A stretch of 64,000 nucleotides of DNA from contig NC_092676.1 of the NCBI RefSeq assembly GCF_964355755.1, forward strand, positions 18,024,288-18,088,287, in the 5' to 3' direction. The notes beneath the pieces were generated by a model. That model was not told the DNA's origin. It searched no databases and saw only the letters and a program-made list of their open reading frames with translations. Position 1 is the stretch's first letter, and the number at the start of each line of letters is the position of its first letter. The translations under genes and the position numbers were made by a program. Source of the stretch: Antedon mediterranea (Eukaryota > Echinodermata > Crinoidea > Comatulida > Antedonidae). This document shows, one piece after another, positions 19,947 to 63,626 of the stretch.

Positions 19947-20018
19947 AATATTTGCAAATTGTTCAATCCATCAAATATACCAGCTGGTAAATTACTAATT
20001 TGGTTATTATCCAAAAAT
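19947..20018 (-). CDS. LRR cassette exon, gene A (FLDN/QI)
   Basis: 72 nt, acceptor TTTCAG, donor GTAAGT, phase 2-2. The frame reads FLDNNQISNLPAGIFDGLNN and onward, a complete 24-residue LRR. Variable block 1 is F-L-D-N; variable block 2 is QI. Confidence 0.9.
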
Positions 20019-20385
20019 CTGAAACAAAATGAACAACATTTAAAGTGAAGTTTGACTATTTTATATTTTACCCATGGTTTCACTTTGTTATCTTTAGTTT
20101 ATTTTAACATAATTTAATAAGCAAAAGTACATATAAGGGCACTATACTGTATTTCATTAGTGATACTATATCAATCATATTGATTGAATTATTAGTGTCT
20201 ATGATTCATGCACCTTTCTGACCGTTGATCATTCACTAGAGCACTGTTAATATGTCCATTAATACAACATCTGTATCATTTTTTTTAAAGCCAACACATT
20301 AAAAATATTTCATTTATGTAAAAATAATGTTTCAAATTTTTAGTTTTTGTTTAATAATAACCCAATAAGTACAAAACAAACTTAC

Positions 20386-20457
20386 AAGTCTTGCAAATTG
20401 TTCAATCCATCAAATATATCAGCTGGTAAATTTCGAATTTCATTACCATTTAACCAT
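20386..20457 (-). CDS. LRR cassette exon, gene A (WLNG/QD)
   Basis: 72 nt, acceptor TTTTTTTAG, donor GTAAGT, phase 2-2. Has WLNGNEIRN in place of the usual NQISN, so it belongs to the NEI subtype with 20734 and 63555. Confidence 0.9.
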
Positions 20458-20733
20458 CTAAAAAAAATAAAAAGTTTAAAAGTGAAATTTGTCTATTTTA
20501 TCACCCATGCTTTTACTAAATTTGTTTTCCTTCGTTTATTTTAACATACTTTTTAAGGCACATTTGTATGATAATTTATGTATGATAATTTTGTTCAGTT
20601 CTTTTTGTTATTATATTAGGCCATCTGGAATGATTAATGTTTAAGTTAAATGCCTTCAGTTGATTATGTTGCTATTAACTATGATTAATGAATTGTGAGT
20701 AATAATAATGCAATAAGTACAAAACATACTTAC

Positions 20734-20805
20734 AATCTTTGCAAATTGTTCAATCCATGAAATATATCAGCTGGTAAATTACTAATTTCATTACCACTCA
20801 ACAAT
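20734..20805 (-). CDS. LRR cassette exon, gene A (LLSG/QR)
   Basis: 72 nt, acceptor ending TTCAG, donor GTAAGT, phase 2-2. Reads LLSGNEISNLPADIF and onward. Helentron copy 2 begins 64 bp beyond its acceptor side. Confidence 0.9.
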
Positions 20806-20868
20806 CTGAAAAAAATTAAAAATTTACCACATTTAAAAGTGAAATTTGTCTATTTTATCACCCATGCT

Positions 20869-22628
20869 TCTATATATAAATTTACGTAAGGGCAAAATTC
20901 GGTAAATCGCGCGTTATTTCTAGAATGTTTACTCGATGGTATATAAAGTTGGTTCGTACTTTCGGTACTGATTTTAACCACCTGATGTAACCCTGTTTAC
21001 TAATTAAATTTAGTTCGATAATTAGTTATTGACGATTAAAACGAATTTAGGTTCAACGATTTGCCCCAAATTGGGGTGTTTTTCGATCGTAGTATACACT
21101 GTCTAATGGATGTCCATCTTGAAAAATACCCGCAGACGATAATACGAGGATGCTTCGCATTTTCCTATCTCCTCTTACGATAATTGTTTTTAATGGCTGA
21201 AAACCGGTTGAACAGCTCGAGTACAGCATCATAATGTTGAAGACAGGCCGATTTTCTTTAAAAAATACTATTTTGATAGATTTAATATACGTTTATACAA
21301 ATGTATTGATTTGCGATGAATGGAACATTCCAATCTCTGTTCCACAAGTGTCTATTCCCTCAGGTGTCGTAAAGGCAAGTCCTGTATACTCATAACAGAA
21401 ATTCGATCCATTTTTTTTTCAATCTGTGCTGCAGAGGTTGGATATAAATTTTTTTTAAACGGATAATGAGCTAGCGTTTTCACTTGCCATATATTATGTA
21501 CAAATCGTTATTATTGCAGTTAAACCACGAACATTATCACCCTTCCCTCACTGGCATGAGTAGCGTTGTAAAACCAGTAGAGGATAGGCCTAAGGTACAT
21601 CACATGGCCTAAACGCAGAACAACGTTGGTGGGTAGGGTAGGAACCCCGGTAGGAACCAACTTAACTATGAATTGGCTCTAAGAAACAATTGAAAACCAT
21701 TAGGCCTACTAATTAAGTTGAGTTGGATAATTTAATATTTATTGACGATTAAATCGAATTTATGATTTTCCCCGAATAGAGGTGGTTTTCACAAATTGTT
21801 TTACATTATATAAACATATACACGTCGTAGTGATGTATCGTTACATGTACTGTACTATTTCAATCCACTAGGACGGTGATAGTTTCAACAAAGTATTACA
21901 TCGCAATGTTTTACTGTGTTTAGTGGTATATTATTTGTAAAACATGAAAACAATAATAATAATAATAACTGGTACTTGATATAGCGCATTATGCTGAAAG
22001 CCTCAATGCGCTTTACAAAGACAGAAAAATTTAGAAAATTACAAATTAAAAAGGTGGGTTTTGAGGAGAGATTTGAAGACACTGGTGGAAGTAGCCTGAC
22101 GGATTTCAATAGGCAACGCATTCCATAGAGAAACGAATGCCGAAGAAAATGAACGATTTCCATAAAACTTAGTGGAAGGATGAAATATATGGGCAAGAAG
22201 AGACTCAGATCTAGATCTCAGAGACCGCTTAGGAACATAAGGTTGAATAAGTTCAATTAATATTTCGTTACTAATTGGATAAAGAATAAATTAAAAAATT
22301 GTTCCTCTTTGCACCCATCTTCTTCCCCATCCCTCAACCCGAATGTTACATACAAAACACAAATTAAGTTTGTTTAAATTTGACTTAAACAATTGGTCTC
22401 ATTTTGTGACAAGTTTCTTTTTCGGAAGTAATTCCCAGGGTGCTAATTTTAGTTGAGTACATAAATCACAGTGTCTATTTATTCGTTCCTGTAAACGACA
22501 TGTATTATTGTCCTGCGGTACGTACATTTGAAATCGCCAGTTTTTTAACGCTGAAATTATTATGTATTGGAGAACCATCTGTGGGCACGACCTAGATGGT
22601 ACGCGAGCGAAGCGAGCGTACCATCTAG
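20869..22628 (+). mobile_element. Helentron-like non-autonomous element, copy 2
   Basis: Same family as 15333-16535 in the opposite orientation: starts TCTATATATAAATTTAC and ends GCGTACCATCTAG. The flanks CCCATGCT and TTTACTAAATTTG are contiguous at about 20501 and 63688 in related introns, so the insertion is between T and T without target duplication. It lies in an intron of receptor gene A. It carries extra sequence (about 21481-21730) relative to copy 1, plus a nested LINE tail. Confidence 0.8.
21945..22254 (-). mobile_element. Truncated LINE tail nested in Helentron copy 2
   Basis: On the minus strand one frame encodes FSSAFVSLWNALPIEIRQA, the conserved C-terminal block of L2/CR1-like reverse transcriptases. 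It is followed by a 3' UTR with GTAAAGCGCATTGAGG and GCGCTATATCAAG and a terminal ATT repeat. It is absent from Helentron copy 1 at the equivalent place, so it inserted after copy 2 formed. Confidence 0.8.
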
Positions 22629-22850: not shown

Positions 22851-22922
22851 AACCATAGCAAATTGTTCAATCCATGAAATATATCAGCTGGTAAATCACT
22901 AATTTGGTTGTCATGCAAATGT
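22851..22922 (-). CDS. LRR cassette exon, gene A (HLHD/LW)
   Basis: 72 nt, acceptor TTTTTGCAG, donor GTAAGT, phase 2-2. Reads HLHDNQISD and ends NNLLW. First cassette of a three-cassette block that is repeated about 2482 bp further up. Confidence 0.9.
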
Positions 22923-23714: not shown

Positions 23715-23786
23715 AAGTATTGCAAATTGTTCAATCCATGAAATATATCAGCTGGTAAATTACTAATTTGGTTATTATCCAACCAT
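23715..23786 (-). CDS. LRR cassette exon, gene A (WLDN/QY)
   Basis: 72 nt, TTGCAG acceptor, GTAAGT donor, phase 2-2. Identical in translation to the cassette at 26197, its partner in the block duplication. Confidence 0.9.
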
Positions 23787-24433: not shown

Positions 24434-24505
24434 AACCATAGCAAATTGTTCAATCCATCAAATATATCAGCTGGTAAATTACTAAATTGGTTGTCACTCA
24501 AAACT
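24434..24505 (-). CDS. LRR cassette exon, gene A (VLSD/LW)
   Basis: 72 nt, TTGCAG acceptor, GTAAGT donor, phase 2-2. Reads VLSDNQFSN; Phe replaces the usual Ile. Partner at 26917 differs at one residue (Ser to Gly), an exposed position. Confidence 0.9.
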
Positions 24506-25331
24506 CTGCAAAAATAAAAAATGAACAACATTTAAAAGTGAAGTTTGTCTACTTTATATGCTACCCATGGTTTCACTATTTTGTTTTCGTAAGTATATTT
24601 TAACATAATTTTTTATCCAACTTTTGGAATTTATGTATAATTATTTTGTTCAGGGAACTTAACATTGCAAGTTGAAACAGAATTCATATCTTATAAAAGA
24701 GAGCACTGTGAATATGTCCATTAAATACAATAATTTGTTTCATTGTGGTTAAAATCAACACATCAAAAATATTTGATTTATATGAAAATAATGTTGAAAA
24801 ATTAATGTTTTTTGTTTAATATGATTAACTTAAATTAATCATTTCAAAATAATTTTACAAATGTTATAATAAATTGCAATTATTGCTATTTATCATCATC
24901 ATCATCACGTACCCTGAACGTCATGTGACATAGTGCACTTTTAAGTCTTAAAAGACTTCTCCAATCAGAGAGATTATTAGCCAAAGTGTACAAAGACTTA
25001 TTTATTTTTTCTTTTTGCATCATTTTCTATAATTTTTATCCATGTGGTTTTAGGTTGTTCTCTTCTGTCATTGATTCAGATAGAGCTCCTTGTGCTGGGA
25101 TATCATAGTCTAGACAAAGAAGGTGTCCACACCATGTCAAGCGTCTTCTCTTTATAACTCTGTTCCATTTTTCCACATGTGTGCTGTTATATAAATCTAT
25201 ATTTGTTATTATATTAGACCATCTGGAATAATTAATGTTTAAGATAAATGCCTTCAGTTGATTATGTTGCTATCAACTATGATTAATGAATTGTGAGCAA
25301 TAATAATGCAATATGTACAAAACATACTTAC

Positions 25332-25403
25332 AATTCTAGCAAATTGTTCAATCCATGAAATATATCAGCTGGTAAATCACTAATTTGGTTGTCATGCAAA
25401 TAT
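25332..25403 (-). CDS. LRR cassette exon, gene A (YLHD/LE)
   Basis: 72 nt, TTGCAG acceptor, GTAAGT donor, phase 2-2. Partner of 22851 in the block duplication; differs by Tyr for His and LE for LW, all at exposed x positions. Confidence 0.9.
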
Positions 25404-26196: not shown

Positions 26197-26268
26197 AAGT
26201 ATTGCAAATTGTTCAATCCATGAAATATATCAGCTGGTAAATTACTAATTTGGTTATTATCCAACCAT
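26197..26268 (-). CDS. LRR cassette exon, gene A (WLDN/QY)
   Basis: 72 nt, phase 2-2, canonical splice sites. Appears identical to 23715 at the nucleotide level. Confidence 0.9.
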
Positions 26269-26916: not shown

Positions 26917-26988
26917 AACCATAGCAAATTGTTCAATCCATCAAATATATCAGCTGGTAAATTACTAAATTGGTTGTCACCCAAAACT
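26917..26988 (-). CDS. LRR cassette exon, gene A (VLGD/LW)
   Basis: 72 nt, phase 2-2. Partner of 24434 with a single A-to-G difference that changes Ser to Gly. Confidence 0.9.
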
Positions 26989-27814
26989 CTGCAAAAATAA
27001 AAAATGAACAACATTTAAAAGTGAAGTTTGTCTACTTTATATGCTACCCATGGTTTCACTATTTTGTTTTCGTAAGTATATTTTAACATAATTTTTTATC
27101 CAACTTTTGGAATTTATGTATAATTATTTTGTTCAGGGAACTTAACATTGCAAGTTGAAACAGAATTCATATCTTATAAAAGAGAGCACTGTGAATATGT
27201 CCATTAAATACAATAATTTGTTTCATTGTGGTTAAAATCAACACATCAAAAATATTTGATTTATATGAAAATAATGTTGAAAAATTAATGTTTTTTGTTT
27301 AATATGATTAACTTAAATTAATCATTTCAAAATAATTTTACAAATGTTATAATAAATTGCAATTATTGCTATTTATCATCATCATCATCACGTACACTGA
27401 ACGTCATGTGACATAGTGCACTTTTAAGTCTTAAAAGACTTCTCCAATCAGAGAGATTATTAGCCAAAGTGTACATAGACTTATTTATTTTTTCTTTTTG
27501 CATCATTTTCTATAATTTTTATCCATGTGGTTTTAGGTTGTTCTCTTCTGTCATTGATTCAGATAGAGCTCCTTGTGCTGGGATATCATAGTCTAGACAA
27601 AGAAGGTGTCCACACCATGTCAAGCGTCTTCTCTTTATAACTCTGTTCCATTTTTCCACATGTGTGCTGTTATATAAATCTATATTTGTTATTATATTAG
27701 ACCATCTGGAATAATTAATGTTTAAGATAAATGCCTTCAGTTGATTATGTTGCTATCAACTATGATTAATGAATTGTGAGTAATAATAATGCAATATGTA
27801 CAAAACATACTTAC

Positions 27815-27886
27815 AATTCTAGCAAATTGTTCAATCCATGAAATATATCAGCTGGTAAATTACTAATTTGGTTGCCCCACAAAGAT
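27815..27886 (-). CDS. LRR cassette exon, gene A (SLWG/LE)
   Basis: 72 nt, phase 2-2. Third-copy position of the block (2483 bp above 25332): its block 2 (LE) matches 25332 but its block 1 (SLWG) matches gene B 62660, a mosaic. Confidence 0.9.
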
Positions 27887-29489: not shown

Positions 29490-29561
29490 AATCCTTGCAA
29501 ATTGTTCAATCCATCAAAAACACCAGCTGGTAAATTACTAATTTGGTTGTCATGCAAATAT
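29490..29561 (-). CDS. LRR cassette exon, gene A (YLHD/QG), transposon at its donor
   Basis: 72 nt, acceptor TTTTTACAG, phase 2-2. Reads YLHDNQISNLPAGVFDG. A TA-flanked TIR element begins 8 bases into the intron; the retained GTAAGTA is still a strong donor, so the exon may still be used. Confidence 0.87.
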
Positions 29562-30002: not shown

Positions 30003-30074
30003 AATCTTTGCAAATTGTTCAATCCATGAAATATATCAGCTGGTAAATTACTAATTTGGTTGTTATCCAACCAT
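30003..30074 (-). CDS. LRR cassette exon, gene A (WLDN/QR)
   Basis: 72 nt, TTTCAG acceptor, GTAAGT donor, phase 2-2. Upstream intron contains the foldback element and the chimeric LINE. Confidence 0.9.
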
Positions 30075-32842: not shown

Positions 32843-33985
32843 TTAATCAATACTGTTGAGGCAGCGAGTGAGAAACGGGATTGCACTGTTTCCATATCTA
32901 TTTGTCTTATTTTTGGGGACCTGGTATGTATTACTTTTCCGTAAGGCCATATTATGCGTACTCATATTTCTCGGAAACCACTCAGCATATCTATACGCAT
33001 TAGCACATTTCTTTGCAAATTCAATGCATAGTTGGTAACGTCTCTCAGTCATAGTATGGAGTCCCAACTGCTTCAGTGACTCCGTGTATGATACGTAATC
33101 CGCACCAACGATAATGCGGCATGCTCTCTTTTGGATTCGCTCCAATTGGCAGGTCTGTTCCTTGGTTATACTGCTATGCCAAACCGGGACAGCGTACTCA
33201 CTTATTGGGCGAACATAACACGTATACACGGAGATCAAATCTTCAGTCGGGACACCAAACCGTTTGAGACGTGATAGCATGTATAGTCGTCGACTACTTT
33301 TACTAATAATATCGTTAAGGTGGGACTGCCAGCCAAGATTGGACTGGACAGTCAGGCCCAGAAGCCTGGTCTCAGACACCGCCTCAAGCTCCACCCCAGC
33401 GATTTGAAGGTGAGGAGGGTTAGGCGGTTCCTTCATAAAACAAACCTGCATAACCTTGCACTTACTGGGGTTGAGCTCGAGACGGTTGTCCGTTGCCCAA
33501 GCATCCAGATCCTGAACATCCACTCCAATCTGGCTGGGTTGATTTGCGGGACGAACTTCTACAAGGCTGAGGTCATCAACATACTTAAAGCTTTTAGCCA
33601 GAGACTCCTCAGAGGCATTATTGATAACAACCATGAAGATTATGGGGCCTAGCTTGGTGCCTTGTGGGACTCCACAAGAAAGCGTCTCCCACCGTGACAA
33701 GGCAGACTGGTATTGCACTCGTTGGCGACGAGATGTAAGGAAGTTTGTTATCCATGGCAGTAACTCGCTTCTGACACCAAGCTCGAAGAGTCTCTGAATA
33801 GCTAAAGTATGATCGATACAGTCAAACGCCTTGGAGAAGTCCGTCACAATAAGGGTGCCAACATTCTTACCCTTGTCTGTACCTTTAAAAAACAAATCAA
33901 GTATTTCAATAAGACAATGGGCAGTGGATGATCCTTTTATGCCACCATATTGGTTACGATCAATTTCTTTACCTATATCTTCCAT
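32843..33985 (-). pseudogene. Second reverse transcriptase (YVDD type) and LINE C-terminus
   Basis: Continues the second RT after a one-base frame change: QYGGIKGSSTAHCL, VTDFSKAFDCIDH, CGVPQGTKLGPIIF and the catalytic YVDD (about residue 140), then RLLGLTVQSNLGWQSH and the tail NAIPFLTR-type C-terminus (GNSAIPFLTRCLN). Belongs to a different LINE lineage from the FADD RT above. Confidence 0.85.
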
Positions 33986-35855: not shown

Positions 35856-35892
35856 TCCAATTCATCTGGGACAATGATGTTATTTAATGTAC

Positions 35893-36745: not shown

Positions 36746-36817
36746 AAGTATTGCAAATTGTTCAATCCATGAAATATAGCAGCTGGTAAATTACTAATTT
36801 GATTTCTCAAAATATCA
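36746..36817 (-). CDS. Atypical first cassette of gene A, acceptor uncertain
   Basis: The donor GTAAGTATG and the QY end with FHGLNNLQY match the cassettes. Similarity stops within the RNQISN region, and no AG exists at the 72-nt boundary. A possible acceptor TATAG would make an 81-nt exon ending at 36826, which keeps the frame (72 + 9) but has a weak pyrimidine tract. This is either the ancestral array-edge exon with unrelated upstream intron, or a damaged cassette. The chimeric LINE ends about 20 bp beyond its donor. Confidence 0.55.
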
Positions 36818-42581: not shown

Positions 42582-42726
42582 ATGCGTTCTAAAGGCTTAT
42601 ACTTATTCATCTTAATGATCAATGCTGCTATGTCACTCCATGGCACTGTTTTCTTCACACACTTGATGTCAAAATACAAATTGTATTGATCCTCTATACC
42701 ATAACATATGCAATCAATTGGACATT
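42582..42726 (-). CDS. LRRNT exon of gene A
   Basis: 145 nt between TTTTAACCACAG and GTAAGTATAC, phase 1-2. Encodes CPIDCICYG and a fourth cysteine about 15 residues later (DIKCVKK): the CxxxCxC...C pattern of an N-terminal LRR cap. It ends KPLER and joins in frame to the first LRR exon. Caps the solenoid at its N-terminal side. Confidence 0.83.
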
Positions 42727-43449: not shown

Positions 43450-43563
43450 TGATTTCACAATGAAGACCAACATATTTATCAGGACAAACACATGTATTAT
43501 TTGACATGTGACATGTACCTCCATTCTGACATGGATTGCTGTTACACATAGTATCTTCAGTTC
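43450..43563 (-). CDS. EGF-like exon of gene A
   Basis: 114 nt between TTTTGTTAG and GTAAGTTTAA, phase 1-1 as usual for EGF exons. Six cysteines in the pattern C-4-C-5-C-6-C-1-C-8-C with CQNGGTC and CPDKYVGLHC. It splices to the LRRNT exon to give GLHCEIKCPIDC. RXFP1/2 carry an LDLa module at this end; an EGF module here is unusual. No upstream exon was identified. Confidence 0.83.
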
Positions 43564-49883: not shown

Positions 49884-52695
49884 AATAAGCGGTGAACCAA
49901 TACACTTTTGGCTAACCGTGCTCAACTGATGTATGTACATAATAAGCGGTGCACCAATACATTTGGCTAACCGTGCTTAACTGATGTATGTACATAATAA
50001 GCGGTGAACCAATACATTTGGCTAACTGTGCTTAACTGATGTATGTACATAATAAGCGGTGAACCAATACATTTGGCTAACCATGCTCAACTGATGTATG
50101 TACATAATAAGTGGTGCACCAATACATTTGGCTAACCGTGCTTAACTGATGTATGTACATAATAAGCGGTGAACCAATACATTTAGCTAACCGTGCTTAA
50201 CCGATGTATGTACATAATAAGCGGTGCACCAATACATTTAGCTAACCGTGCTTAACTGATGTATGTACATAATAAGCGGTGAACCAATACATTTGGCTAA
50301 CCGTGCTTAACCGATGTATGTACATAATAAGCGTTGCACCAATACATTTAGCTAACCGTGCTTAACTGATGTATGTACATAATAAGCGGTGAACCAATAC
50401 ATTTGGCTAACTGTGCTTAACTGATGTATGTACATAATAAGCGGTGCACCAATACATTTAGCTAACCGTGCTTAACTGATGTATGTACATAATAAGCGGT
50501 GAACCAATACATTTGGCTAACTGTGCTTAACTGATGTATGTACATAATAAGCGGTGCACCAATACATTTGGCTAACTGTGCTTAACTGATGTATGTACAT
50601 AATAAGCGGTGAACCAATACATTTGGCTAACTGTGCTTAACTGATGTATGTACATAATAAGTGGTGAACCAATACATTTGGCTAACCGTGCTCAACCGCT
50701 GTATGTACATAATAAGCGGTGAACCAATACATTTAGCTAACCGTGCTCAACTGATGTATGTACATAATAAGCGCTGCACCAATACATTTGGCTAACCGTG
50801 CTTAACTGATGTATGTACATAATAAGCGGTGCACCAATACATTTAGCTAACCGTGCTCAACTGATGTATGTACATAATAAGTGGTGCACCAATACATTTA
50901 GCTAACCGTGCTCAACCGCTGTATGCACATAATAAGCGGTGAACCAATACATTTGGCTAACTGTGCTCAACTGATGTATGCACATAATAAGCGGTGCACC
51001 AATACATTTGGCTAACCGTGCTCAACCGCTGTATGTACATAATAAGCGGTGAACCAATACATTTGGCTAACCGTGCTCAACCGCTGTATGTACATAATAA
51101 GCGGTGCACCAATACATTTGGCTAACCGTGCTCAACCGCTGTATGTACATAATAAGCGGTGAACCAATACATTTGGCTAACCGTGCTCAACCGCTGTATG
51201 TACATAATAAGCGGTGCACCAATACATTTGGCTAACCGTGCTCAACTGATGTATGTACATAATAAGCGGTGCACCAATACATTTGGCTAACCGTGCTTAA
51301 CTGATGTATGCACATAATAAGCGGTGCACCAATACATTTGGCTAACCGTGCTCAACCGCTGTATGTACATAATAAGCGGTGCACCAATACATTTGGCTAA
51401 CCGTGCTTAACTGATGTATGTACATAATAAGCGGTGAACCAATACATTTGGCTAACCGTGCTCAACTGCTGTATGTACATAATAAGCGGTGCACCAATAC
51501 ATTTAGCTAACCGTGCTCAACTGATGTATGTACATAATAAGCGGTGCACCAATACATTTGGCTAACCGTGCTTAACTGATGTATGTACATAATAAGCGGT
51601 GAACCAATACATTTGGCTAACCGTGCTTAACTGATGTATGTACATAATATGCGGTGCACCAATACATTTGGCTAACCGTGCTTAACTGATGTATGTACAT
51701 AATAAGCGGTGAACCAATACATTTGGCTAACCGTGCTCAACTGATGTATGTACATAATAAGCGGTGCACCAATACATTTGGCTAACCGTGCTTAACTGAT
51801 GTATGTACATAATATTGCGGTGCACCAATACATTTGGCTAACCGTGCTTAACTGATGTATGCACATAATAAGCGGTGCACCAATACATTTGGCTAACCGT
51901 GCTCAACCGCTGTATGTACATAATAAGCGGTGCACCAATACATTTGGCTAACCGTGCTTAACTGATGTATGTACATAATAAGCGGTGAACCAATACATTT
52001 GGCTAACCGTGCTCAACCGCTGTATGTACATAATAAGCGGTGCACCAATACATTTAGCTAACCGTGCTCAACTGATGTATGTACATATTAAGCGTTGCAC
52101 CAATACATTTGGCTAACCGTGCTTAACTGATGTATGTACATAATAAGCGGTGAACCAATACATTTGGCTAACCGTGCTTAACTGATGTATGTACATAATA
52201 TGCGGTGCACCAATACATTTGGCTAACCGTGCTTAACTGATGTATGTACATAATAAGCGGTGCACCAATACATTTGGCTAACCGTGCTCAACTGATGTAT
52301 GTACATAATAAGCGGTGCACCAATACATTTGGCTAACCCTGCTTAACTGATGTATGTACATAATAAGCGGTGAACCAATACATTTGGCTAACCGTGCTTA
52401 ACTGATGTATGTACATAATATGCGGTGCACCAATACATTTGGCTAACCGTGCTTAACTGATGTATGTACATAATAAGCGGTGAACCAATACATTTGGTTA
52501 ACCGTGCTCAACTGATGTATGTACATAATAAGCGGTGCACCAATACATTTGGCTAACCGTGCTTAACTGATGTATGTACATAATAAGCGGTGCACCAATA
52601 CATTTGGCTAACCGTGCTTAACTGATGTATGTACATAATAAGCGGTGCACCAATACATTTGGCTAACTGTGCTTAACTGATGTATGTACATAATA
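49884..52695. repeat. 55-bp satellite array, unit B, about 51 copies
   Basis: Same satellite as in unit A, but with about 20 more copies and without the LTR insertion. Private variants recur about 551 bp apart (for example AATATGCGG near 51649 and 52200), which suggests block duplications of about ten monomers. Confidence 0.95.
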
Positions 52696-53085
52696 CATGT
52701 AGCAGTTAAAAACAAAGAGTGTATACAGGCCTACAAATGTGAACACATATTGTAAATATTACCTGACTAACATTAAAAAACCCAAATTTGTTTTAGCTGA
52801 AATATTTCAATTAAGACTGCTTAGCATCATCAAAAGCTCTGCAATCAAACACGCGCATGTTGCACTTATTTAATAATTACAGCAAACATAATAACAACAA
52901 AAAATATATATTAAAAGGTAGTGTATAACGGTTGCGATCCGAGTTGGTTCTAAACTGCCTCGGTCCAAAGTCAAGTTTAGGGGCGACTTAAACGGCTACC
53001 ATATAAACTATAGTAAAATATTGCACTCATTAACATTTTTATCACACATGTTTTTTACAAGAAATATTCAATTGTTCTGTATGTA

Positions 53086-53995
53086 AGTGATGGACAATAC
53101 AATAAATAACAATATAGCCACATAATGCCTATATAGCTTCAATATACCGAGTATCACAAACATTACAATTAAGATATACAATTTATTTTAACGATAGTGC
53201 AAAAAATAGTAGGTACATTAATTATAAGTAAGTGAAAACAATACAATAAATAACAATGATAGGTATTTGTAACAATCTATATTTATAAATTTAAATTTAA
53301 ATCAAGATATAATCATTAAACAATAACAAGACAGTAGGTTAAATAGGTAAATTATGTAGAATTGATTTGAATACAAACATCACAAAATATGATTTTAACA
53401 TTGCTTCAAGCGACGTTAAAATCATATTAAACAAATGTATTAATAAAGTAAATATTTTTTTTTTCAATATTTTTCTATTATAATAATAATATTGACATTA
53501 TAATTACAATCAAGAGCAACATTAATATATCAAATATTAGAGGTCTACACCATATAAATAAGTGATGTACAATTAATAAATAATAATATAGCCACATAAT
53601 GCCTATATAGCTTCAAACACAAACATTACAATTAAGATATACAATTTATTTTAACGAGAGTGCAAAAAATAGTAGGTACATTAATTATAAGTAAGTGAAA
53701 ACAATACAATAAATAACAATGATAGGTATTTTAAACAATCTATATTTATAAATTTAAAATTAAAATCAAGATATAATCATTAAACGATAACAAGACAGTA
53801 GGTTAAATAGGTAAATTATGTAGAATTGATTTGAATACAAACATCACAAAATATGATTTGAACATTGCTTCAAGCGATGTTAAAATCATATTAAACAAAT
53901 GTATTAATAAAGTAAATATTTTTTTTTTCAATATTTTTCTATTATAATAAACATATTGACATTATAATTACAATCAAGAGCAACAGTAATATATT
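53086..53995. repeat. 475-bp direct duplication in unit B
   Basis: The segment from 53086 to about 53530 repeats from 53561 to about 53995 (AGTGATG...ATATAGCCACATAATGCC, then TAATTATAAGTAAGTGAAAA). Unit A has a single copy, which is where Helentron copy 1 inserted. Confidence 0.85.
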
Positions 53996-54338
53996 CTATA
54001 TATACAGTGTAAAATAAATAATCTATAAATTATTAAATATTATATTCTATATGTCAAATAATTAATCTATACATTTCTATATTTAAGAATTAGATAACAT
54101 AACATTTAAGAGTGAAAATGAATACATTGAAATGAATTCATGTATAGTATAATCCTTCATCACATTGTAATAATATAAATATATATAAAATACATTAAAT
54201 CTAATTATATGCATGGAACAACTGTGGTAATTAAAACAAATGTATTAATTATTAAAGTGCAATAATAAGAATAATCAAACATTTGTTAAACTTTGGAATG
54301 AGTGCATTGGCACTCAATCTGTGAAAGTCAGTGCATCA

Positions 54339-54657
54339 CAGGCCCGTATGCAGCATTTATAATGGGGGGGTGCGAGCGAAGCGAGAAACAATGGCTGGGG
54401 GCCAGGGGGCCGCCAAGGGCCCCCGGTCAGGGTCCAAAATTTGCGTTATTTGACGTTCTAAAGACTGATTTAAGACTCTCTGTTGTGGCTTGGGCTAGTT
54501 GAACGATGGACACCAGAACTTAACGCTTTCATGATGAGGCCAACTCAGCAGGGGTGGCGCCAGGATCTTCCCGACGCGGGGGCTACATTCCCCGACGAGG
54601 GGGCTATGCGAGCGAAGTGAGCATCACTAGGCTGAGGGCCAGGGGGCCGCCAAGGGC

Positions 54658-54690
<33 letters not shown>

Positions 54691-56496
54691 AAGCAACGCG
54701 TTCTAGCGTCATTTGAGGTCTTTTTAATCAGATTTAGGGTAGCCATTTTTTCCATTTTTTTTAATGCATAAATAAAATACTGCGTGCAAAAAAACGATGC
54801 GCGATGACTGTTTCAATCCATATTTTTCAATTTAAAAAATAAAAGTTCAAAGAAAATTTAGAAAAATAGAGTTGGAGGTCCCTATCATGGGTTGTGACTG
54901 AGCTAAGAAATGTTTGAAAAATAGAGATGTTAGGTCCCGGAAAATGTACTTCTTGTTCTTTGAAATATGACCAGCTTTATTGTTGGGGCTGAGCTAAGAA
55001 AATGTTTAAAACTAGAGCTGCAGGTCTTCAAGAAATTGCATTTTATACTTTGGAAACATCAGGCCTAGAGGCTTAAAAAAAAGGCAAGCGTAGACCTTTT
55101 TCAGTCGGGGAAATAAGTTTATTCCTCCCAGGTGTATGCATGCGTACCATCTGGACTTCCGAGTGGTGAGAAATTCATGACATACAGGATATTGAAAATG
55201 TAATAACTATAGCTATAATGTTGGCTAAGCGAAAATGGCATGTTTTTTTGTTTAGTAATGGATGAAAAATTTATTTTAGGTGCCCCACGGTACAGAAGGT
55301 TACTTGTAAATTAAAAAATTGGTGAACAAACGAACAATTAACATAATTCGTTTTTGCTGTAGTGTAGCGTACGTCGACGCAGTACACGACGTAACCGTCG
55401 GTAAACTTCGTCTGGAAAATAACACATTACACATTTTGGTCCCTGGATGAAACTTGATATCACGCGTCTCGACCCAACGTTGAATGATTCGTACAAAGGG
55501 ATACCGCCAGACTGGCAATAATGAATGCATATAAAGTGCATAATATCACTCTGACGTACTCTAACTGTCAATGAAACGTCGCGGTTTTCTAGGCGCTGAA
55601 GCTAGCTACGAAGTGAACGCGAACGCTTTTTACTGTATATTATATTCCCCGACAAAAAGTTCACGTGTTCCCTTCGGTAACCGTCGGTAAACTTCGCCTG
55701 GAAAATAACTACATTACACATTTTGGTCCCTGGATGAAACTTGATATCACGCGTCTCGACCCAACGTTGAACGATTCGTACAAAGGGATACCGCCAGACA
55801 AGTGCGTACCTAGCTAATGTTTAGTAGTAAGTTAGATCGCTGGCAATAATGAATGCATAAAAGTGCATATTAGCCCTCTGACGTACTCTCACGGTCAATG
55901 GAACGTCGTGGTTTTCTAGGCGCTGAAGCTATATGAAGTGAACGCGAACGTTTTTTACTGTATATTATATTCCCCGACAAAAAGTACCCGTGTTCCCCGT
56001 TTGGGGCTAGGCTCCCCGACGAGGGGATAGAGCCCCCGTAGCCCCCCCCCCCCCGCTGGCGGCAACACTGCAACTCAGACAGCGTAGTACGACGCTGTCT
56101 GAGTTGTAGCGCCGTATTCGATAGTGTCTGTATTTCCAGACACGTCTTTACCGCCGGTTAAGTTGTCTGTATTTCTCCAGCAAACACTTTACCGCGTACC
56201 GCGTACATGAAGCGCTAAGCTATTCTTGTCGTCACATGATCGACTGCGCATGTTTTACATCGAGTTTGTAGTCAGTTCAGATTCCGTAATTTAATTACCG
56301 GTATTTTTTCATTTTATATTAGCATATTTTTGTTTGTATACAATTGATAATGTAAATTTTGTATATATATAATGATATTGTCTTTAGTTAAACAAGAAAA
56401 GAAAAAATACCAACCGAGGAAATAGTGGACCTTTTTGGACTTAGGGGGGGGGGGGGTGCGTCTGCACCCAACGCACCCCCCCTGGATACGGGCCTG
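54339..56496. mobile_element. TIR transposon, non-autonomous, unit B only
   Basis: Ends CAGGCCCGTATGCAG and, inverted, CAGGCCCGTATCCAG. CATCA is found on both sides (54334-54338, 56497-56501), and unit A has the intact site near 17168. GC-rich, with GGGGGCCGCCAAGGGCCCCC palindromes near 54405 and 54643 and an internal duplication (55390-55620 and 55695-55930). No transposase frame recognised; superfamily uncertain. Confidence 0.82.
55378..55935. repeat. Internal direct repeat of the TIR element
   Basis: GTAACCGTCGGTAAACTTCG and about 150 following bases (TTTTGGTCCCTGGATGAAAC and onward) occur twice, about 300 bp apart. Confidence 0.85.
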
Positions 56497-56768
56497 CATC
56501 AAAACATCAAGATATTACACATGATATATCACAACAAATTTACAATAAAATACAGCAACAATACCAAACAGCCACAAGAATACATTTCCTGAAAAGTACA
56601 ACTCAACCCTAAAAGTTATATGCGGGTTGAAATAGTACTTTTGGCTGACTTTAACAATAAACAGATTAAATGCAAGGAACAATGCAATTCTTAAACAGAA
56701 TGCAGATAGAAAGTACAAGATACTATACAACTATAAATTTATAACCTCGATCCACTGACATTAAAGCC

Positions 56769-57753
56769 TTAACGGTTTGTTTTTTCGCTTGAACACGTAT
56801 ATATGATCGTGTACAGATACGGATTAACTGCCGAGTTGATCGGTAAAATGAAGGTTGCTGCCCAAACATATATTTCTGCAGGGATATCCCAATGTTTAGT
56901 TTCCGAGCAAATTCCCATTAAAATGATGGGAAACCAGCAACAAAAATCTGTACCAATTATAAACACTAGCTTCCGTGCAATTCGCAACTGTTCTTCAAGG
57001 CTTTTCCTTCTATTAACAGTCGCTGATGATCTTTTCACAGAAAAAAATATTGTGAGATAACTAACGACCATGACCAAGAAACCGAAACCGTTAAATGCAA
57101 TGAAGATAGCAGTGGCATACTCCCAGCCTGGTAAATGACTTCGAGTTAGCGGTAACGGAAGGCAGACACTCTGTTTACCATAGTAGTTCTCTCCAAAGTA
57201 AGGCAGGTCGATGAAGCTCAACTTGTTTGCAGCTACCGGTAAGAAACTGATAGCAGCAATAACAACCCAAGCAATGACGATGACTATTTTGCATGTTTTA
57301 CGACTGAGACGTCTAGTGTTAAAAGGACTAACAATGTTTACAGCCCGGTCGACGCTCATAACCATCAACGTAAACACCGAGCATTCACTGGAAAGAGTAG
57401 AAATAGCACCTGCAAAACTGCAAGTGAAACTACTTTTCCAATATTCTAGAACTTCCGAGTATCTACCTCTATAGTGAATATCAGCCCCTGCAATAATTAG
57501 CAGATACATTGCCATAAGTAGATCAGAGATGGCAAGACTGGAGATCAGCATGGAATCAACAGTTTTCTCTTTATTGCAACACCTTGATATGAGAACAAGT
57601 GCATTGCCAATAATGGAGGAAACACCAATTACGAGCATCAACACCCTAAGCGATTTCCTTTTTAGTAAATCTTGGCATGATGCGAAAGCATCAGTGGGTT
57701 CACAGATCTCAATGTCACCAACAACACAACACAAATGGAAAAAATCTGAATAG
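56769..57753 (-). CDS. 7TM exon of gene B, relaxin-receptor-like GPCR
   Basis: Same length (985 nt) and layout as 17668-18652. By eye there are seven nucleotide differences; two change residues: Asp to Glu at 56 in the first intracellular loop (CNKEKTVDS) and Arg to Lys at 171 (ANKLSF). All landmark motifs are kept: Asp71, Cys105/Cys191, DRA, CWFP and NPYLY. The acceptor TTTTCATTCAG and phase 2 start are intact, so the copy looks functional. Confidence 0.93.
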
Positions 57754-58220: not shown

Positions 58221-58292
58221 AACTGTGTTAAATTTACCAACTCTTTAAAAGTCTTGTCTTCATAATCTTTCAAGTTGTTGTATGTTAGGTTT
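58221..58292 (-). CDS. Last LRR exon of gene B, divergent
   Basis: Paralogue of 19120-19191 with no difference seen. 72 nt, phase 2-2. Confidence 0.88.
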
Positions 58293-59059
58293 CTGTAGGA
58301 TAATAAATTCAGAATGATCATATTCATTTAATAATAACTTTAAATTCACATGTCATGAGGAAACTTTCTGAATGATTGAAATCAAAACAGTACTGGGTTT
58401 GGTTTACTAGCATTCCTGCTCCCAAAAGTCATCCATTCATAGAAGCACTGATGAAGAAAGTCTATCCATGGTGGCCATAGAATGGTCCTGAAACATACTT
58501 TGGCTTTAGTTGATAGAAGTTTGAAACATTTTATTAGAAATAGAGTATTATGTAAGTTATAAACTTTGTGGCAATGACAATGTTTACAAAAAGCTGAATG
58601 TGCATTAGAGGCAAGAATACAAGCAGGTGTCTTACAACACAGATTATGAACTTACAGAATTAACAGTGATGAAGCAAATGGAGAAAATGCACCATCCTCT
58701 ATGTTAGTTATAGAGTTGTTCTGTAACTGTCTGTTAACAAATTAACAACAACAATTATGATACTAAATTTAGTTATTTCAGGACTGAAGATGATCAACTG
58801 CAATTGCCTTTATTGGTATTTACTGCTCTGTCATAGTACTATATTATTCAATGTAATCAACTAAAGTACATGTTTTAAAGATACAGTATACTGTCCCACT
58901 GTAAAAATAAATTTACTATTAATCTTTGTTAAATATGCCATTCTAATGTCACATAATAGTAATCATCAGTCAACAAATTTTAAAATAAATAACAATTATT
59001 ACTATCAACTATGATTAATGAATTAAGAGTATAACACAATACGTACAAAACATACTTAC

Positions 59060-59131
59060 AATCTTTGCAAATTGTTCAATCCATCAAATATACCAGCTGG
59101 TAAATTACTAATTTGGTTGTTTTCCAACAAT
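59060..59131 (-). CDS. LRR cassette exon, gene B (LLEN/QR)
   Basis: 72 nt, TTGCAG acceptor, GTAAGT donor, phase 2-2. Occupies the place of 19947 in gene A but carries a different block 1, the point where the two genes stop being colinear. Confidence 0.9.
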
Positions 59132-59286: not shown

Positions 59287-59358
59287 AATCTTTGCAAATT
59301 GTTCAATCCATGAAATATATCAGCTGGTAAATTACTAATTTGGTTGTTTTCCAACAAT
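59287..59358 (-). CDS. LRR cassette exon, gene B (LLEN/QR)
   Basis: 72 nt, phase 2-2. Nearly identical to 59060, separated by an intron of only 155 bp, the shortest cassette spacing in the window. Confidence 0.9.
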
Positions 59359-60042
59359 CTGCAAAAATAAAAATAAACAACATTTAAAAGTGAAGTTTGT
59401 CTACTTTATATGCTACCCATGGTTTCAATATTTTGTTTTCTTTAGTTTATTTTAACATAATTTTGTATTCAACTTTTAAAATGTATCTATGATCTTGTTT
59501 ATAAAAGAAAGTTGAAGAATTAATGTTTTTATTTAATATGATTAACTTAAATTAATTATTTCACAATAATTTTACAAATGTTATAATAAATTGCAATTAT
59601 TGCTGTTCATCATCATCACAAACACTGAACGTCATGTGACATAGTGCACTTTTAAGTCTTAAAAGACTTCTCCAATCAGAGAGATTATTAGCCAAAGTGT
59701 ACATAGACTTATTTATTTTTTCTTTTTGCATCATTTTCTATAATTTTTATCCATGTAGTTCTAGGTTATTCTCTTTTGCCATTGATTCAGATAGAGCTCC
59801 TTGTGCTGGGATATCAGAGTCTAGACAAAGAAGGTGTCCACACCATGTCAAGCGTCTTCTCTTTATAACTCTGTTCCATTTTTCCTCATGTGTGCTGTTA
59901 TATAAATCTATATTTGTTATTATATTAGGCCATTTGGAATAATTAATGTTTAAGTTAAATGCCTTCAGTTGATTATGTTGCTATTAACTATGATTAATGA
60001 ATTGTGAGTAATAATAATGCAATAAGTACAAAACATACTTAC

Positions 60043-60114
60043 AAGACTTGCAAATTGTTCAATCCATGAAATATATCAGCTGGTAAATTACTAATTTGGT
60101 TGTCATGCAAATAT
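60043..60114 (-). CDS. LRR cassette exon, gene B (YLHD/QV)
   Basis: 72 nt, phase 2-2, canonical splice sites. Block 1 matches 25332, 29490 and 61796; block 2 (QV) is unique in the window. Confidence 0.9.
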
Positions 60115-60935
60115 CTGCAAAAACAAAAATGAACAACATTTAAAAGTGAAGTTTGTCTACTTTATATGCTACCCATGGTTTCACTATTTTGATTTCTTAA
60201 GTATATTTTAACATAATTTTTTATCCAACTTTTGGAATTTATGTATGATTATTTTGTTCAGGGTAAACTTAACATTGCAAGTTGAAACAGAATTCAGATC
60301 TTATAAAAGAGCACTGTGAATATGTCCATTAAATACAATAATTTGTTTCATTGTGGTTAAAATCAACACATCAAATATATTTGATTTATATGAAAATAAT
60401 GTTGAAAAATTTATGTTTTTTTGTTTAATATGATTAACTTAAATTAATCATTTCAAAATAATTTTACAAATGTTATAATAAATTGCAATTATTGCTATTT
60501 ATCATCATCACGAACACTGAACGTCATCTGACATAGTGCACTTTTAAGTCTTAAAAGACTTCTACAATCAGAGAGATTATTGGCCAAAGTGTGCATGGAA
60601 TTATTTATTTTTTCTTTTCTATCATTTTTTATAATTTTTATCCATGTGGTTCTAGGTTGTTCTCTTCTGTCATTGATTCTGATAGAGCTCCTTGTGCTGG
60701 GATATCGTAGTCTAGACTAAGAAGGTGTCCACACCATGTCAAGCGTCTTCTCTTAATCACTCTGCTCCATTTTTCCTCATGTGTGCTGTTATATAAATCT
60801 ATATTTGTTATTATATTAGGCCATCTGGAATAATTAATGTTTAAGTTAAATTCCTTCACTTGATTTAATGTTGCTATCAACTATGATTAATGAATTGTTA
60901 GTAATAATAATGCAATGAGTACAAAACATACTTAC

Positions 60936-61007
60936 AAGTAATGCAAATTGTTTAATCCATCAAATATACCAGCTGGTAAATTACTAATTTGGTTGTTCTC
61001 CAACAAT
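60936..61007 (-). CDS. LRR cassette exon, gene B (LLEN/HY)
   Basis: 72 nt, phase 2-2. Block 1 matches 59060; block 2 (HY) is unique. Confidence 0.9.
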
Positions 61008-61795
61008 CTGCAAAAATAAAAATGAACAACATTTAAAAGTGAAGTTTTACTACTTTATATGCTACCCATGGTTTCACTATTTTGTTTTCTTTAGTTTATT
61101 TTAACATAATTTTTTATCCAACTTTTGGAATTTATGTATGATTATTTTGTTCAGGGAACTTAACATTGCAAGTTGAAACAGAATTCATATCTTATAAAAG
61201 AGAGCACTGTGAATATGTCCATTAAATACAATAATTTGTTTCATTGTGGTTAAAATCAACACATCAAAAATATTTGATTTATATGAAAATAATGTTGAAA
61301 AAATAATGTTTTTTGTTTAATATGATTAACTTAAATTAATCATTTCACAATAATTTTACAAATGTTATAATAAATTGCAATTATTGCTATTCATCATCAT
61401 CACAAACAGGGCACTTAAGACTTCTCCAATCAGAGAGATTATTAGCCAAAGTGTACATAGACTTATTTATTTTTTCTTTTTGCATCATTTTCTATAATTT
61501 TTATCCATGTGGTTCTAGGTTGTTCTCTTCTGTCATTGATTCAGATAGAGCTCCTTGTGCTGGATATCAGAGTCTAGACAAAGAAGGTGTCCACACCATG
61601 TCAAGCGTCTTCTCTTTATAACTCTGTTCCATTTTTCCTCATTTGTGCTGTTATATAAATCTATATTTGTTATTATATTAGACCATCTGGAATAATTAAT
61701 GTTTAAGTTAAATGCCTTCAGTTGATTATGTTGCTATTAACTATGATTAATGAATTGTGAGTAATAATAATGCAATAAGTACAAAACATACTTAC

Positions 61796-61867
61796 AATCT
61801 TTGCAAATTGTTCAATCCATCAAATATATCAGCTGGTAAATTACTAATTTGGTTGTCATGCAAATAT
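61796..61867 (-). CDS. LRR cassette exon, gene B (YLHD/QR)
   Basis: 72 nt, phase 2-2. The surrounding intron resembles that of 25332 in gene A more than its own neighbours, suggesting an older shared block or exchange between the genes. Confidence 0.9.
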
Positions 61868-62659
61868 CTGCAAAACCAAAAATAAACAACATTTAAAAGT
61901 GAAGTTTGACTACTTTATACTACCCATAGTTTCACTATTTTATATTCTTTAGTTTATTTTAACATAATTTTTTATCCAACTTTTAGAATTTATGTATGAT
62001 TATTTTTGTTCAGTGAAAACTTGTAACATTGAAAGCTGAAACAGAATTCAGATCTTACAAAAAGAGCACTGTGAATATGTCTATTAAATACAACAATTTG
62101 TTTCATTTTGGTTAAAATCAACATATCAAATATATTTGATTTATATGAAAATAATGTTGAAAAATTAATGTTTTTGTTTAATTTGATTAACTTAAATTAA
62201 TCATTTCACAATTATTTTACAAATGTTATAATAAATTCCAATTATGCTATTCATCATCATCATGAACACTGAACGTCATGTTACATAGTGCACTTAAGAT
62301 TTCTCCAATCAGAGAGATTATTGGCCAAAGTGTACATAGACTTATTTGTTCTATAATTTTTATCCATGTGGTTTTAGGTCGTGTCTTGACTTTTCTAATT
62401 GATTCAGATAGAGTTCATTGCGCTGGGATATCGTAGTCTAGATGAAGAAAGTGTCCACACCATGTCAAGCGTCTTCTCTTTATAACTCTGTTCCATTTTT
62501 CTTCATTTGTGCTGTTATATAAATCTATATTTGTTATTATATTAGACCATCTGGAATAATTAATGTTTAAGTTAAATGCCTTCAGTTGATTATGTTGCTA
62601 TTAACTATGATTAATGAATTGTGAGTAATAATAATGCACTAAGTACAAAACATACTTAC

Positions 62660-62731
62660 AAGTATTGCAAATTGTTCAATCCATGAAATATATCAGCTGG
62701 TAAATTACTAATTTGGTTGCCCCACAAAGAT
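62660..62731 (-). CDS. LRR cassette exon, gene B (SLWG/QY)
   Basis: 72 nt, phase 2-2. Block 1 matches 27815 of gene A; block 2 matches 23715 and 26197. Confidence 0.9.
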
Positions 62732-63554
62732 CTGCAAAAATAAAAAATGAACAACATTTAAAAGTGAAGTTTGTCTACTTTATATGCTACCCATAGTTTC
62801 ACTATTTTGTTTTCTTAAGTATATTTTAACATAATTTTTTATCCAACTTTTGGAATTTATGTATGATTATTTTGTTCAGGGAACTTAACATTGCAAGTTG
62901 AAACAGAATTCATATCTTATAAAAGAGAGCACTGTGAATATGTCCATTAAATACAATAATTTGTTTCATTGTGGTTAAAATCAACACATCAAAAATATTT
63001 GATTTATATGAAAATAATGTTGAAAAATTAATGTTTTTTGTTTAATATGATTAACTTAAATTAATCATTTCAAAATAATTTTACAAATGTTATAATAAAT
63101 TGCAATTATTGCTATTTATCATCATCATCACGTACACTGAACGTCATGTGACATAGTGCACTTTTAAGTCTTAAAAGACTTCTCCAATCAGAGAGATTAT
63201 TAGCCAAAGTGTACATAGACTTATTTATTTTTTCTTTTTGCATCATTTTCTATAATTTTTATCCATGTGGTTCTAGGTTGTTCTCTTCTGTCATTGATTC
63301 AGATAGAGCTCCTTGTGCTAGGATATCAGAGTCTAGACAAAGAAGGTGTCCACACCATGTCAAGCGTCTTCTCTTTATAACTCTGTTCCATTTTTCTTCA
63401 TTTGTGCTGTTATATAAATCTATATTTGTTATTATATTAGGCCATCTGGAATAATTAATGTTTAAGTTAAATGCCTTCAGTTGATTATGTTGCTATTAAC
63501 TATGATTAATGAATTGTGAGTAATAATAATGCAATAAGTACAAAACATACTTAC

Positions 63555-63626
63555 AACTGTAGCAAATTGTTCAATCCATGAAATATATCAGCTGGTAAAT
63601 TTCGAATTTCATTACCATACAACCAT
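63555..63626 (-). CDS. LRR cassette exon, gene B (WLYG/LQ)
   Basis: 72 nt, TTTCAG acceptor, phase 2-2. NEIRN subtype like 20386. Confidence 0.9.

What the first reader, a model, noticed from the sequence alone, without database searches (positions are those of the whole stretch)
19947..63626. LRR cassettes of a GPCR vary almost only at concave-surface positions
Seen directly: across the intact amplified 72-nt cassettes of genes A and B the codons for the framework (NQISNLPA, IF, GLNNL) are nearly unchanged even at silent sites. The residues at the x positions of LxxLxLxxN differ sharply: block 1 is FLDN, WLDN, WLNG, LLSG, HLHD, YLHD, VLSD, VLGD, SLWG, LLEN or WLYG; block 2 is QI, QD, QR, QY, LW, LE, QG, QV, HY or LQ. 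These positions line the ligand-facing side of an LRR solenoid. Known: variable lymphocyte receptors and plant NLRs vary at the same positions under diversifying selection. Inference: a relaxin-receptor-like GPCR is being used as a diversified recognition receptor.
Basis: partly seen in the sequence, partly recalled or inferred. Interest (0 to 1): 0.88.

Follow-up and report, generated by a model that had tools for sequence, protein, structure and literature searches.

The report
Diversified ligand-face exons in crinoid GPCRs
In a feather star, a tandem cluster of cell-surface receptors carries many near-identical repeat exons that differ mostly where the protein would touch its target, which suggests that evolution is rapidly varying what these receptors recognise, although their targets and function are untested.

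Summary
The window lies in a crinoid chromosome (best protein match Antedon mediterranea, 99%). It holds two of four near-identical tandem receptor genes spanning about 143 kb. Recognised exons: EGF, LRRNT, 9-12 intact 72-nt single-LRR cassettes (phase 2-2), two fixed LRR exons and one RXFP1-like 7TM exon. There are 45 intact cassettes (19 in the window). Among 248 cassette pairs whose intron flanks differ by under 5%, the five x codons of LxxLxLxxN have pN about 0.46, against about 0.03 for the framework and 0.02 for framework silent sites. On a flank tree, omega is 45 at x codons and 0.87 in the framework. The four 7TM exons are under purifying selection (pN/pS 0.06-0.16), so the genes look functional. 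Exceptions: position 20 varies between H and D, and silent excess at x7/x8/N9 points to short-block exchange as well as point substitution. Best reading: germline-diversified recognition GPCRs made by exon and gene duplication, recombination and strong diversifying selection on the concave face, evolving like PRDM9 zinc fingers. An immune role is plausible but unproven; chemosensory or mate/gamete recognition remain open. No transcript data were available, so exon use is inferred.

The parts
43450..43563 (-). Gene A EGF-like exon (114 nt, phase 1-1); the same exon lies upstream in genes B, C and D
   Evidence: Sequence and splice sites read; found in all four genes
42582..42726 (-). Gene A LRRNT cap exon (145 nt, phase 1 to 2; CPIDCICYG...)
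   Evidence: Found by exon scan in gene B, then by blastn in A, C, D with conserved splice sites
36746..36806 (-). Broken cassette (5' part lost); the same remnant occurs in gene C
30003..30074 (-). Gene A cassette 1, LWLDNNQISNLPADIFHGLNNLQR
29490..29561 (-). Gene A cassette 2, LYLHDNQISNLPAGVFDGLNNLQG
27815..27886 (-). Gene A cassette 3, LSLWGNQISNLPADIFHGLNNLLE
26917..26988 (-). Gene A cassette 4, LVLGDNQFSNLPADIFDGLNNLLW
26197..26268 (-). Gene A cassette 5, LWLDNNQISNLPADIFHGLNNLQY
25332..25403 (-). Gene A cassette 6, LYLHDNQISDLPADIFHGLNNLLE
24434..24505 (-). Gene A cassette 7, LVLSDNQFSNLPADIFDGLNNLLW
23715..23786 (-). Gene A cassette 8, LWLDNNQISNLPADIFHGLNNLQY
22851..22922 (-). Gene A cassette 9, LHLHDNQISDLPADIFHGLNNLLW
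20734..20805 (-). Gene A cassette 10, LLLSGNEISNLPADIFHGLNNLQR
20386..20457 (-). Gene A cassette 11, LWLNGNEIRNLPADIFDGLNNLQD
19947..20018 (-). Gene A cassette 12, LFLDNNQISNLPAGIFDGLNNLQI
19556..19630 (-). Gene A fixed LRR exon c1 (75 nt)
   Evidence: 98-99% identical in B, C, D over 111 nt
19120..19191 (-). Gene A fixed LRR exon c2 (72 nt)
17668..18652 (-). Gene A cysteine-rich hinge and 7TM exon, with stop codon
   Evidence: Pfam 7tm_1 1.8e-31; nearest solved structure RXFP1, 5.5e-47
63855..63911 (-). Gene B broken cassette (3' part and donor site lost)
63555..63626 (-). Gene B cassette LWLYGNEIRNLPADIFHGLNNLLQ
62660..62731 (-). Gene B cassette LSLWGNQISNLPADIFHGLNNLQY
61796..61867 (-). Gene B cassette LYLHDNQISNLPADIFDGLNNLQR
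60936..61007 (-). Gene B cassette LLLENNQISNLPAGIFDGLNNLHY
60043..60114 (-). Gene B cassette LYLHDNQISNLPADIFHGLNNLQV
59287..59358 (-). Gene B cassette LLLENNQISNLPADIFHGLNNLQR
59060..59131 (-). Gene B cassette LLLENNQISNLPAGIFDGLNNLQR
58656..58730 (-). Gene B fixed LRR exon c1
58221..58292 (-). Gene B fixed LRR exon c2
56769..57753 (-). Gene B hinge and 7TM exon
   Evidence: 99.3% identical to gene A over 985 nt

Best explanation
This is a tandem cluster of four crinoid LRR-containing GPCR genes (EGF, LRRNT, 9-12 variable LRR exons, two fixed LRR exons, RXFP1-like 7TM) whose ligand-binding surface is diversified in the germline. Shown by sequence: exons and whole genes were duplicated recently; framework, introns and 7TM stayed nearly identical; the five x codons per cassette, which flank and follow the short beta-strand of the repeat, differ by replacements far beyond the flanking neutral divergence; block 1 (x5,x7,x8) and block 2 (x2,x3) are partly re-paired. 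Inferred: the cassettes are spliced in series (all are phase 2-2, so any number or subset keeps the frame); each receptor therefore presents a different mosaic concave surface; ligand binding signals through the conserved 7TM; and the selection comes from fast-changing outside molecules, most likely of microbes or parasites, otherwise conspecific or environmental cues.
For: 45 intact cassettes in four genes, with 36 distinct five-residue faces among the 44 typical ones. In 230 cassette pairs with flank divergence 0.02-0.05: x pN 0.475, framework pN 0.030, framework pS 0.020, flank 0.038. In 21 pairs with at least 600 aligned flank bases at 3% or less: flank 269/14528, x 70/315, framework 25/1197. 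Codon model on the flank tree: omega 44.5 at x (lnL -634.6, against -657.5 at omega 1 with kappa fixed at 2) and 0.87 for the framework. Four 7TM exons without stops; pN 0.003-0.007 and pS 0.023-0.059 over six pairs. Gene A's 12 cassettes, c1, c2 and 7TM splice to 665 residues with no stop. 42% of x3/x5/x7 residues are Y, W, F or H, against 16% for random codons of the window's base composition. AlphaFold2 model of the relative P0121: the 13 LRR strands that I listed are all x3-L4-x5. Seven of the eight Antedon and Anneissia rows nearest the window gene aside, the family tree gives one crinoid clade of 8 rows (100/100) with an Antedon group of 5 (100/99); a ninth crinoid row, P0023, falls outside.
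Against: No transcript, expression or binding data, so splicing and function are inferred. The first (signal-peptide) exon was not found, so no complete protein is shown. In same-residue comparisons of close pairs, silent differences are raised at x7/x8 (14 of about 47 sites) and N9 (22 of about 79), though none are seen at x5 or x2/x3; this indicates short-block exchange, which inflates counts on a single tree. 6 of the 21 closest pairs show no x change at all. The pairs share cassettes and are not independent. The framework as a whole is not clearly purifying (omega 0.87). All data come from one assembly, so population diversity is unknown. X divergence is saturated, so its rate is approximate.
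Confidence: 0.7

Rival explanations
1. Chemosensory or mate/gamete recognition: the cluster varies what external chemical or conspecific protein it detects, not pathogen recognition.
For: GPCR signalling; a GRL101-like LGR is enriched in starfish sensory tentacles (PMC6267866, passages); LGRs of this class are proposed or known to bind insulin/relaxin-type peptides (PMC8286064, passages). The same sequence evidence fits.
Against: No expression data for these genes. Very strong diversifying selection on a protein-binding face is more usual for antagonistic partners (my judgement, no call); gamete and self/non-self recognition would also produce it.
Confidence: 0.3
2. Concerted evolution alone: x codons are old variants, and gene conversion has homogenised introns and framework, without recent positive selection.
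For: Beyond 2% flank divergence, x pN no longer rises (0.475, 0.480, 0.494, 0.482, 0.454 in successive bins). Raised silent divergence at x7/x8/N9. Blocks 1 and 2 are partly re-paired.
Against: Below 2% flank divergence x pN is lower (0.219, 18 pairs), as expected if changes still accumulate. Leucines L4, L6 and L1 between the x codons and the framework silent sites are nearly uniform too, so conversion tracts would have to skip single codons; x5 and x2/x3 show no silent differences in same-residue pairs below 10% flank divergence. In a duplicate with 0 of 700 aligned flank differences (2 gaps) the only exonic change is a replacement at x7. Keeping diversity at x only still needs selection.
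Confidence: 0.2
3. Targeted mutation of x codons (a hypermutable block), not selection.
For: Very high x rate; silent excess at x7/x8/N9.
Against: Silent sites interleaved with x5 and x7 are nearly fixed (L4 TTA 44 of 44, L6 TTG 42 of 44) and x5 uses one codon per residue for all 10 residues; block 2 lies about 50 nt away with a nearly uniform framework between.
Confidence: 0.05
4. Decaying, non-functional exon array; the pattern is drift.
For: Four broken cassettes among 49 detected; transposon frames and tandem repeats between the exons.
Against: 45 of 49 cassettes keep frame and both splice sites; four 7TM exons without stops at pN/pS 0.06-0.16.
Confidence: 0.04

Closest known systems
PRDM9 zinc-finger arrays (PMC2779102, passages)
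   Same: Near-identical tandem units in which target-contacting codons vary; concerted evolution plus positive selection; dN/dS of about 10-32 reported at contact positions
   Different: PRDM9 fingers are read from one final exon and bind DNA; here each unit is a separate exon encoding an extracellular repeat
Lamprey variable lymphocyte receptors (PMC3308329, passages)
   Same: LRR cassettes at a locus; the concave surface mediates antigen binding
   Different: VLR cassettes flank an incomplete gene, in either orientation, and are copied into it somatically; here the cassettes are in-line exons with splice sites on the coding strand of a GPCR gene, with no sign of somatic assembly (not testable here)
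GRL101-like LGR cluster SudRes2 of Biomphalaria sudanica (PMC12297450, passages)
   Same: Tandem cluster of LRR GPCRs of the GRL101-like type, in a region associated with parasite resistance
   Different: Those carry LDLa and C-type lectin domains; concave-only variation of amplified LRR exons is not described in the passages I read
Relaxin and glycoprotein-hormone receptors (RXFP1, FSHR)
   Same: Closest solved 7TM sequences; LRR ectodomain
   Different: Low-copy hormone receptors; RXFP1 carries an LDLa module (recalled), this cluster has an EGF exon and no LDLa found
Highly variable plant NLRs (PMC8226289, search listing only)
   Same: LRR surface diversified for recognition
   Different: Intracellular receptors with another signalling architecture (recalled)

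Membership tests
LGR type C / GRL101-like GPCR | Rhodopsin-class 7TM closest to RXFP/glycoprotein-hormone receptors | tested here: met
   Pfam 7tm_1 1.8e-31; best solved structures RXFP1 5.5e-47, FSHR 3e-31
LGR type C / GRL101-like GPCR | Leucine-rich repeat ectodomain with an LRRNT cap | tested here: met
   LRRNT exon in four of four genes (named by its cysteine pattern, recalled); cassettes, c1, c2
LGR type C / GRL101-like GPCR | N-terminal LDLa module(s) | tested here: not met
   Pattern scan of 264 kb: no LDLa apart from one loose match inside a transposon-like frame; an EGF exon in each of the four genes. The first exon was not found, so a divergent module cannot be excluded
True GRL101 orthologue | Same clade as LDLa-bearing echinoderm GRL101 | tested here: inconclusive
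   The crinoid clade of 8 rows (100/100) does not include the two LDLa-bearing urchin rows, but the forks joining these groups are weak or open
Variable lymphocyte receptor system | Diversity at concave LRR positions | tested here: met
   that these positions are concave is known for LRR proteins (recalled)
Variable lymphocyte receptor system | Incomplete germline gene flanked by donor cassettes in either orientation | tested here: not met
   All 45 intact cassettes are on the coding strand, in line, with splice sites (both strands scanned)
Variable lymphocyte receptor system | Somatic assembly in lymphocyte-like cells | not testable with these tools
   One assembly only
PRDM9-like concerted array under positive selection | Homogenised framework with dN/dS well above 1 at contact codons | tested here: met
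   omega 44.5 at x, 0.87 framework; flank comparison
Dscam-like alternatively spliced repertoire | Different exon choices in transcripts | not testable with these tools
   No RNA data; the exons are frame-compatible (phase 2-2)

The most novel reading that the evidence does not exclude
Crinoids independently turned a hormone-receptor-like GPCR into a repertoire receptor: in-line, frame-compatible LRR exons with diversified concave faces are spliced in different numbers and combinations, so that a few genes yield thousands of ectodomains feeding one conserved G-protein output, a Dscam- and VLR-like system on a GPCR chassis.
Probability: 0.22. Interest if true: 0.95.

Novelty: new variant of a known kind. 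Interest (0 to 1): 0.78.

Why it matters
Echinoderms are described as diversifying recognition through large germline families such as TLRs, NLRs and scavenger receptors (PMC13428168, passages). Here a GPCR family carries a sharp signature of diversification centred on the ligand face, in LRR exons that can be counted and aligned one by one. It gives a direct, testable case of how a hormone-type receptor can become a recognition receptor, and the exon-per-repeat layout makes repertoire, splicing and selection measurable with long reads from individuals.

Tried and rejected
A first cassette profile wrongly included a chance match at 45909-45980; its hits at 45980 and 1494 are artefacts and were dropped. 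A hydrophobic frame starting ATG at 43609 before the EGF exon looked like a signal peptide, but the ATG is ATA in genes B and D and the stretch reads like a polypyrimidine tract before an acceptor, so I do not claim it; a filtered scan for a signal-peptide exon in 43640-56700 printed no candidate. A conserved block at 38057-38202 was suspected to be an exon and rejected: no LRRNT signature, and I judged it transposon-like. NG86 pS at x codons (0.42) is dominated by multi-hit codons and was replaced by same-residue comparisons. A search for amplified cassettes of a second subfamily by pattern did not complete. Whether other subfamilies show the same pattern is therefore open: the 9 kb that I read (L035) held two 72-nt LRR exons and one 75-nt exon with differing frameworks, and the relative on C6 has at least seven cassettes, with more framework change, in the 60 kb read. 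D100232, a divergent distal cassette, was dropped before the counts on 44. The structure job was not followed by a fold search.


Full report
WHAT IT IS. The window is part of an animal chromosome. Its 7TM exons match a deposited protein of the feather star Antedon mediterranea at 99% (P0001), and the window lies at G000:C7:18024288-18088287 of a 354 Mb, 18-contig assembly. The species is inferred from that match. I fetched 100 kb on each side and read 264 kb.

GENE ANATOMY. The cluster's genes are on the minus strand. The 264 kb hold four near-identical genes, called C, A, B, D in chromosome order, spanning about 143 kb from the 7TM exon of C to the EGF exon of D. Each has one 7TM exon (B, C and D 98.3-99.3% identical to A), the fixed LRR exons c1 (75 nt) and c2 (72 nt), an array of 72-nt LRR cassettes, an LRRNT exon and an EGF-like exon. 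The exon phases fit: EGF 1-1, LRRNT 1-2, cassettes, c1 and c2 2-2. The first exon was not found. Intact cassettes number 12, 12, 12 and 9 in C, A, B and D, 45 in all; four more are broken, making 49 detected. Gene A's cassettes, c1, c2 and 7TM splice to 665 residues without a stop. The deposited P0001 carries the last two cassettes of gene C plus c1, c2 and 7TM; its first residues resemble neither the EGF nor the LRRNT exon, so I take it for a truncated gene model.

THE VARIATION. In LRR terms each cassette reads L4-x5-L6-x7-x8-N9-Q-I-S-N-L-P-A-D-I-F-H/D-G-L-N-N-L1-x2-x3. Among 44 typical cassettes the amino-acid diversities are x7 0.88, x3 0.88, x5 0.82, x8 0.68, position 20 0.50, x2 0.47, and 0.25 or less elsewhere. 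There are 27 block-1 triplets, 13 block-2 pairs and 36 distinct five-residue faces. Mutual information links x5, x7 and x8 with one another, and x2 with x3; across blocks x7-x3, x7-x2, x8-x2 and x5-x2 do not reach p 0.05, while x5-x3 (p 0.004) and x8-x3 (p 0.002) do (no correction for the 28 tests). So the blocks are partly, not freely, re-paired.

SELECTION. Over all 946 pairs: x pN 0.477, framework pN 0.037, framework pS 0.063, flank 0.166; x pN over framework pS is 7.6 (95% bootstrap over cassettes 5.0-15.2), x pN over flank 2.9 (2.2-3.9). Many flanks are no longer homologous over their whole length, so close pairs are the better test. In 230 pairs with flank divergence 0.02-0.05, x pN is 0.475 against 0.038 in flanks. 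In 18 pairs below 0.02 it is 0.219 against 0.010. With longer flanks (at least 600 aligned bases, 3% or less), 21 pairs give flank 0.0185, x 0.222 and framework 0.0209; 6 of these 21 show no x change. On a tree made from flanks alone, omega is 44.5 at the 5 x codons and 0.87 at the 19 framework codons. The tree ignores recombination, and x is saturated, so I treat omega as 'far above 1', not as an estimate. The 7TM exons show pN 0.0026-0.0066 and pS 0.0227-0.0588 in the six comparisons, that is, purifying selection; their silent divergence is of the same order as the close cassette flanks.

RESULTS AGAINST A SIMPLE STORY. In same-residue comparisons of close pairs, silent differences are raised at x7, x8 and N9 but absent at x5 and x2/x3. 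Some of block 1 therefore probably moved as short blocks. Beyond 2% flank divergence x pN does not grow further, as expected from saturation or from shuffling of variants. The framework omega is near 1, because positions 10, 11, 12, 13, 17 and 20 vary; the residues at L4, L6, L14, P15, F19, L22 and L1 are the same in 44 of 44. Targeted mutation fits poorly, because silent sites next to the x codons (L4, L6) are almost fixed.

STRUCTURE. A direct model of gene A was not made. AlphaFold2 of the Anneissia relative P0121 (20-row alignment, mean pLDDT 79) places a three-residue strand at x3-L4-x5 in 13 of the 13 LRR-region strands that I listed; residues 252-274, which cover another repeat, are below pLDDT 50 and have no strand. 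That x residues face the concave side is established knowledge of LRR proteins (recalled). x3, x5 and x7 are rich in Y, W, H and F (42% against 16% for random codons), as expected of a binding face.

FAMILY. By sequence the nearest solved 7TM is RXFP1 (5.5e-47). The genome shows 70 matches to the 7TM exon at E below 1e-70, three of which I judged partial, in several clusters (tally by eye; 120 of 272 candidates were scored, so this is a lower bound). A framework pattern with up to 3 mismatches finds 51 places: 47 in this cluster (44 intact and 3 broken cassettes) and 4 near C6:28.62-28.68 Mb, beside a 7TM exon 91% identical. In a 26-row tree, 8 crinoid rows form a clade (100/100) with an Antedon group of 5 (100/99); a ninth crinoid row (P0023, Antedon) lies outside, and deeper forks are weak. 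The literature gives one GRL101, with LDLa repeats, per ambulacrarian species studied (PMC8286064, passages); the present genes show no LDLa and look like a different expansion.

FUNCTION. The shared signature with PRDM9 (PMC2779102, passages) says that target recognition changes fast. For LRR GPCRs the nearest functional lead is SudRes2, a region with a cluster of GRL101-like receptors associated with schistosome resistance in a snail (PMC12297450, passages); its top variants lie in a neighbouring non-GRL101 gene, so even there the receptors are candidates. A starfish GRL101-like gene enriched in sensory tentacles (PMC6267866, passages) keeps the chemosensory rival open. I give immune or symbiont recognition somewhat more weight than chemosensory or reproductive recognition.

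NOVELTY. Searches of the held papers listed nothing that by title or abstract start describes concave-only variation in LRR exon arrays of a GPCR, or this crinoid expansion; only listings and the passages named were read. LRR-based recognition, concerted arrays under selection and LGR clusters linked to resistance are each known; I did not find the combination, so I rate it a new variant of a known kind.

Noticed in passing
window 49884-52695 and 6400-8049: Long tandem arrays of a 55-nt satellite (51 and 30 copies) with nearly the same consensus, outside the cassette arrays.
   Followed up: no
window 41316-42421 and 40829-40991: 67-nt tandem repeat array between the LRRNT exon and the cassettes of gene A; matching arrays lie at the same place in genes B, C and D.
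   Followed up: partly
window 25039-25269, 27522-27752, 59750-59980, 60641-60880, 63262-63492: Introns between cassettes carry repeated open fragments (WNRVIKRRRLTWCGHL...) that resemble a reverse-transcriptase/endonuclease tail (resemblance recalled; Pfam gave nothing for the one tested); they may provide homology for unequal exchange.
   Followed up: partly
window 32846-36741: LINE-type frames, two of them with RVT_1, between the broken cassette at 36.8 kb and the array of gene A.
   Followed up: no
window 9596-12341: Retroelement-like frames, one with zinc knuckles (zf-CCHC), on the minus strand.
   Followed up: no
G000:C8:24384671-24487353: Cluster of eight related 7TM exons about 70% identical to gene A, each matched with at least one stop codon inside; could be pseudogenes or a shared earlier stop.
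   Followed up: no
G000:C7:4084537-4479910: Four related 7TM exons 120-140 kb apart; one read stretch (L035) has single-LRR 72-nt exons and a 75-nt c1-like exon, so the exon-per-LRR layout is older than this cluster.
   Followed up: partly
window coordinate -18077 (gene C, outside the window; cassette LALSFYQISN...): Cassette with Y in place of the otherwise uniform N9 and F at x8, yet intact splice sites.
   Followed up: no
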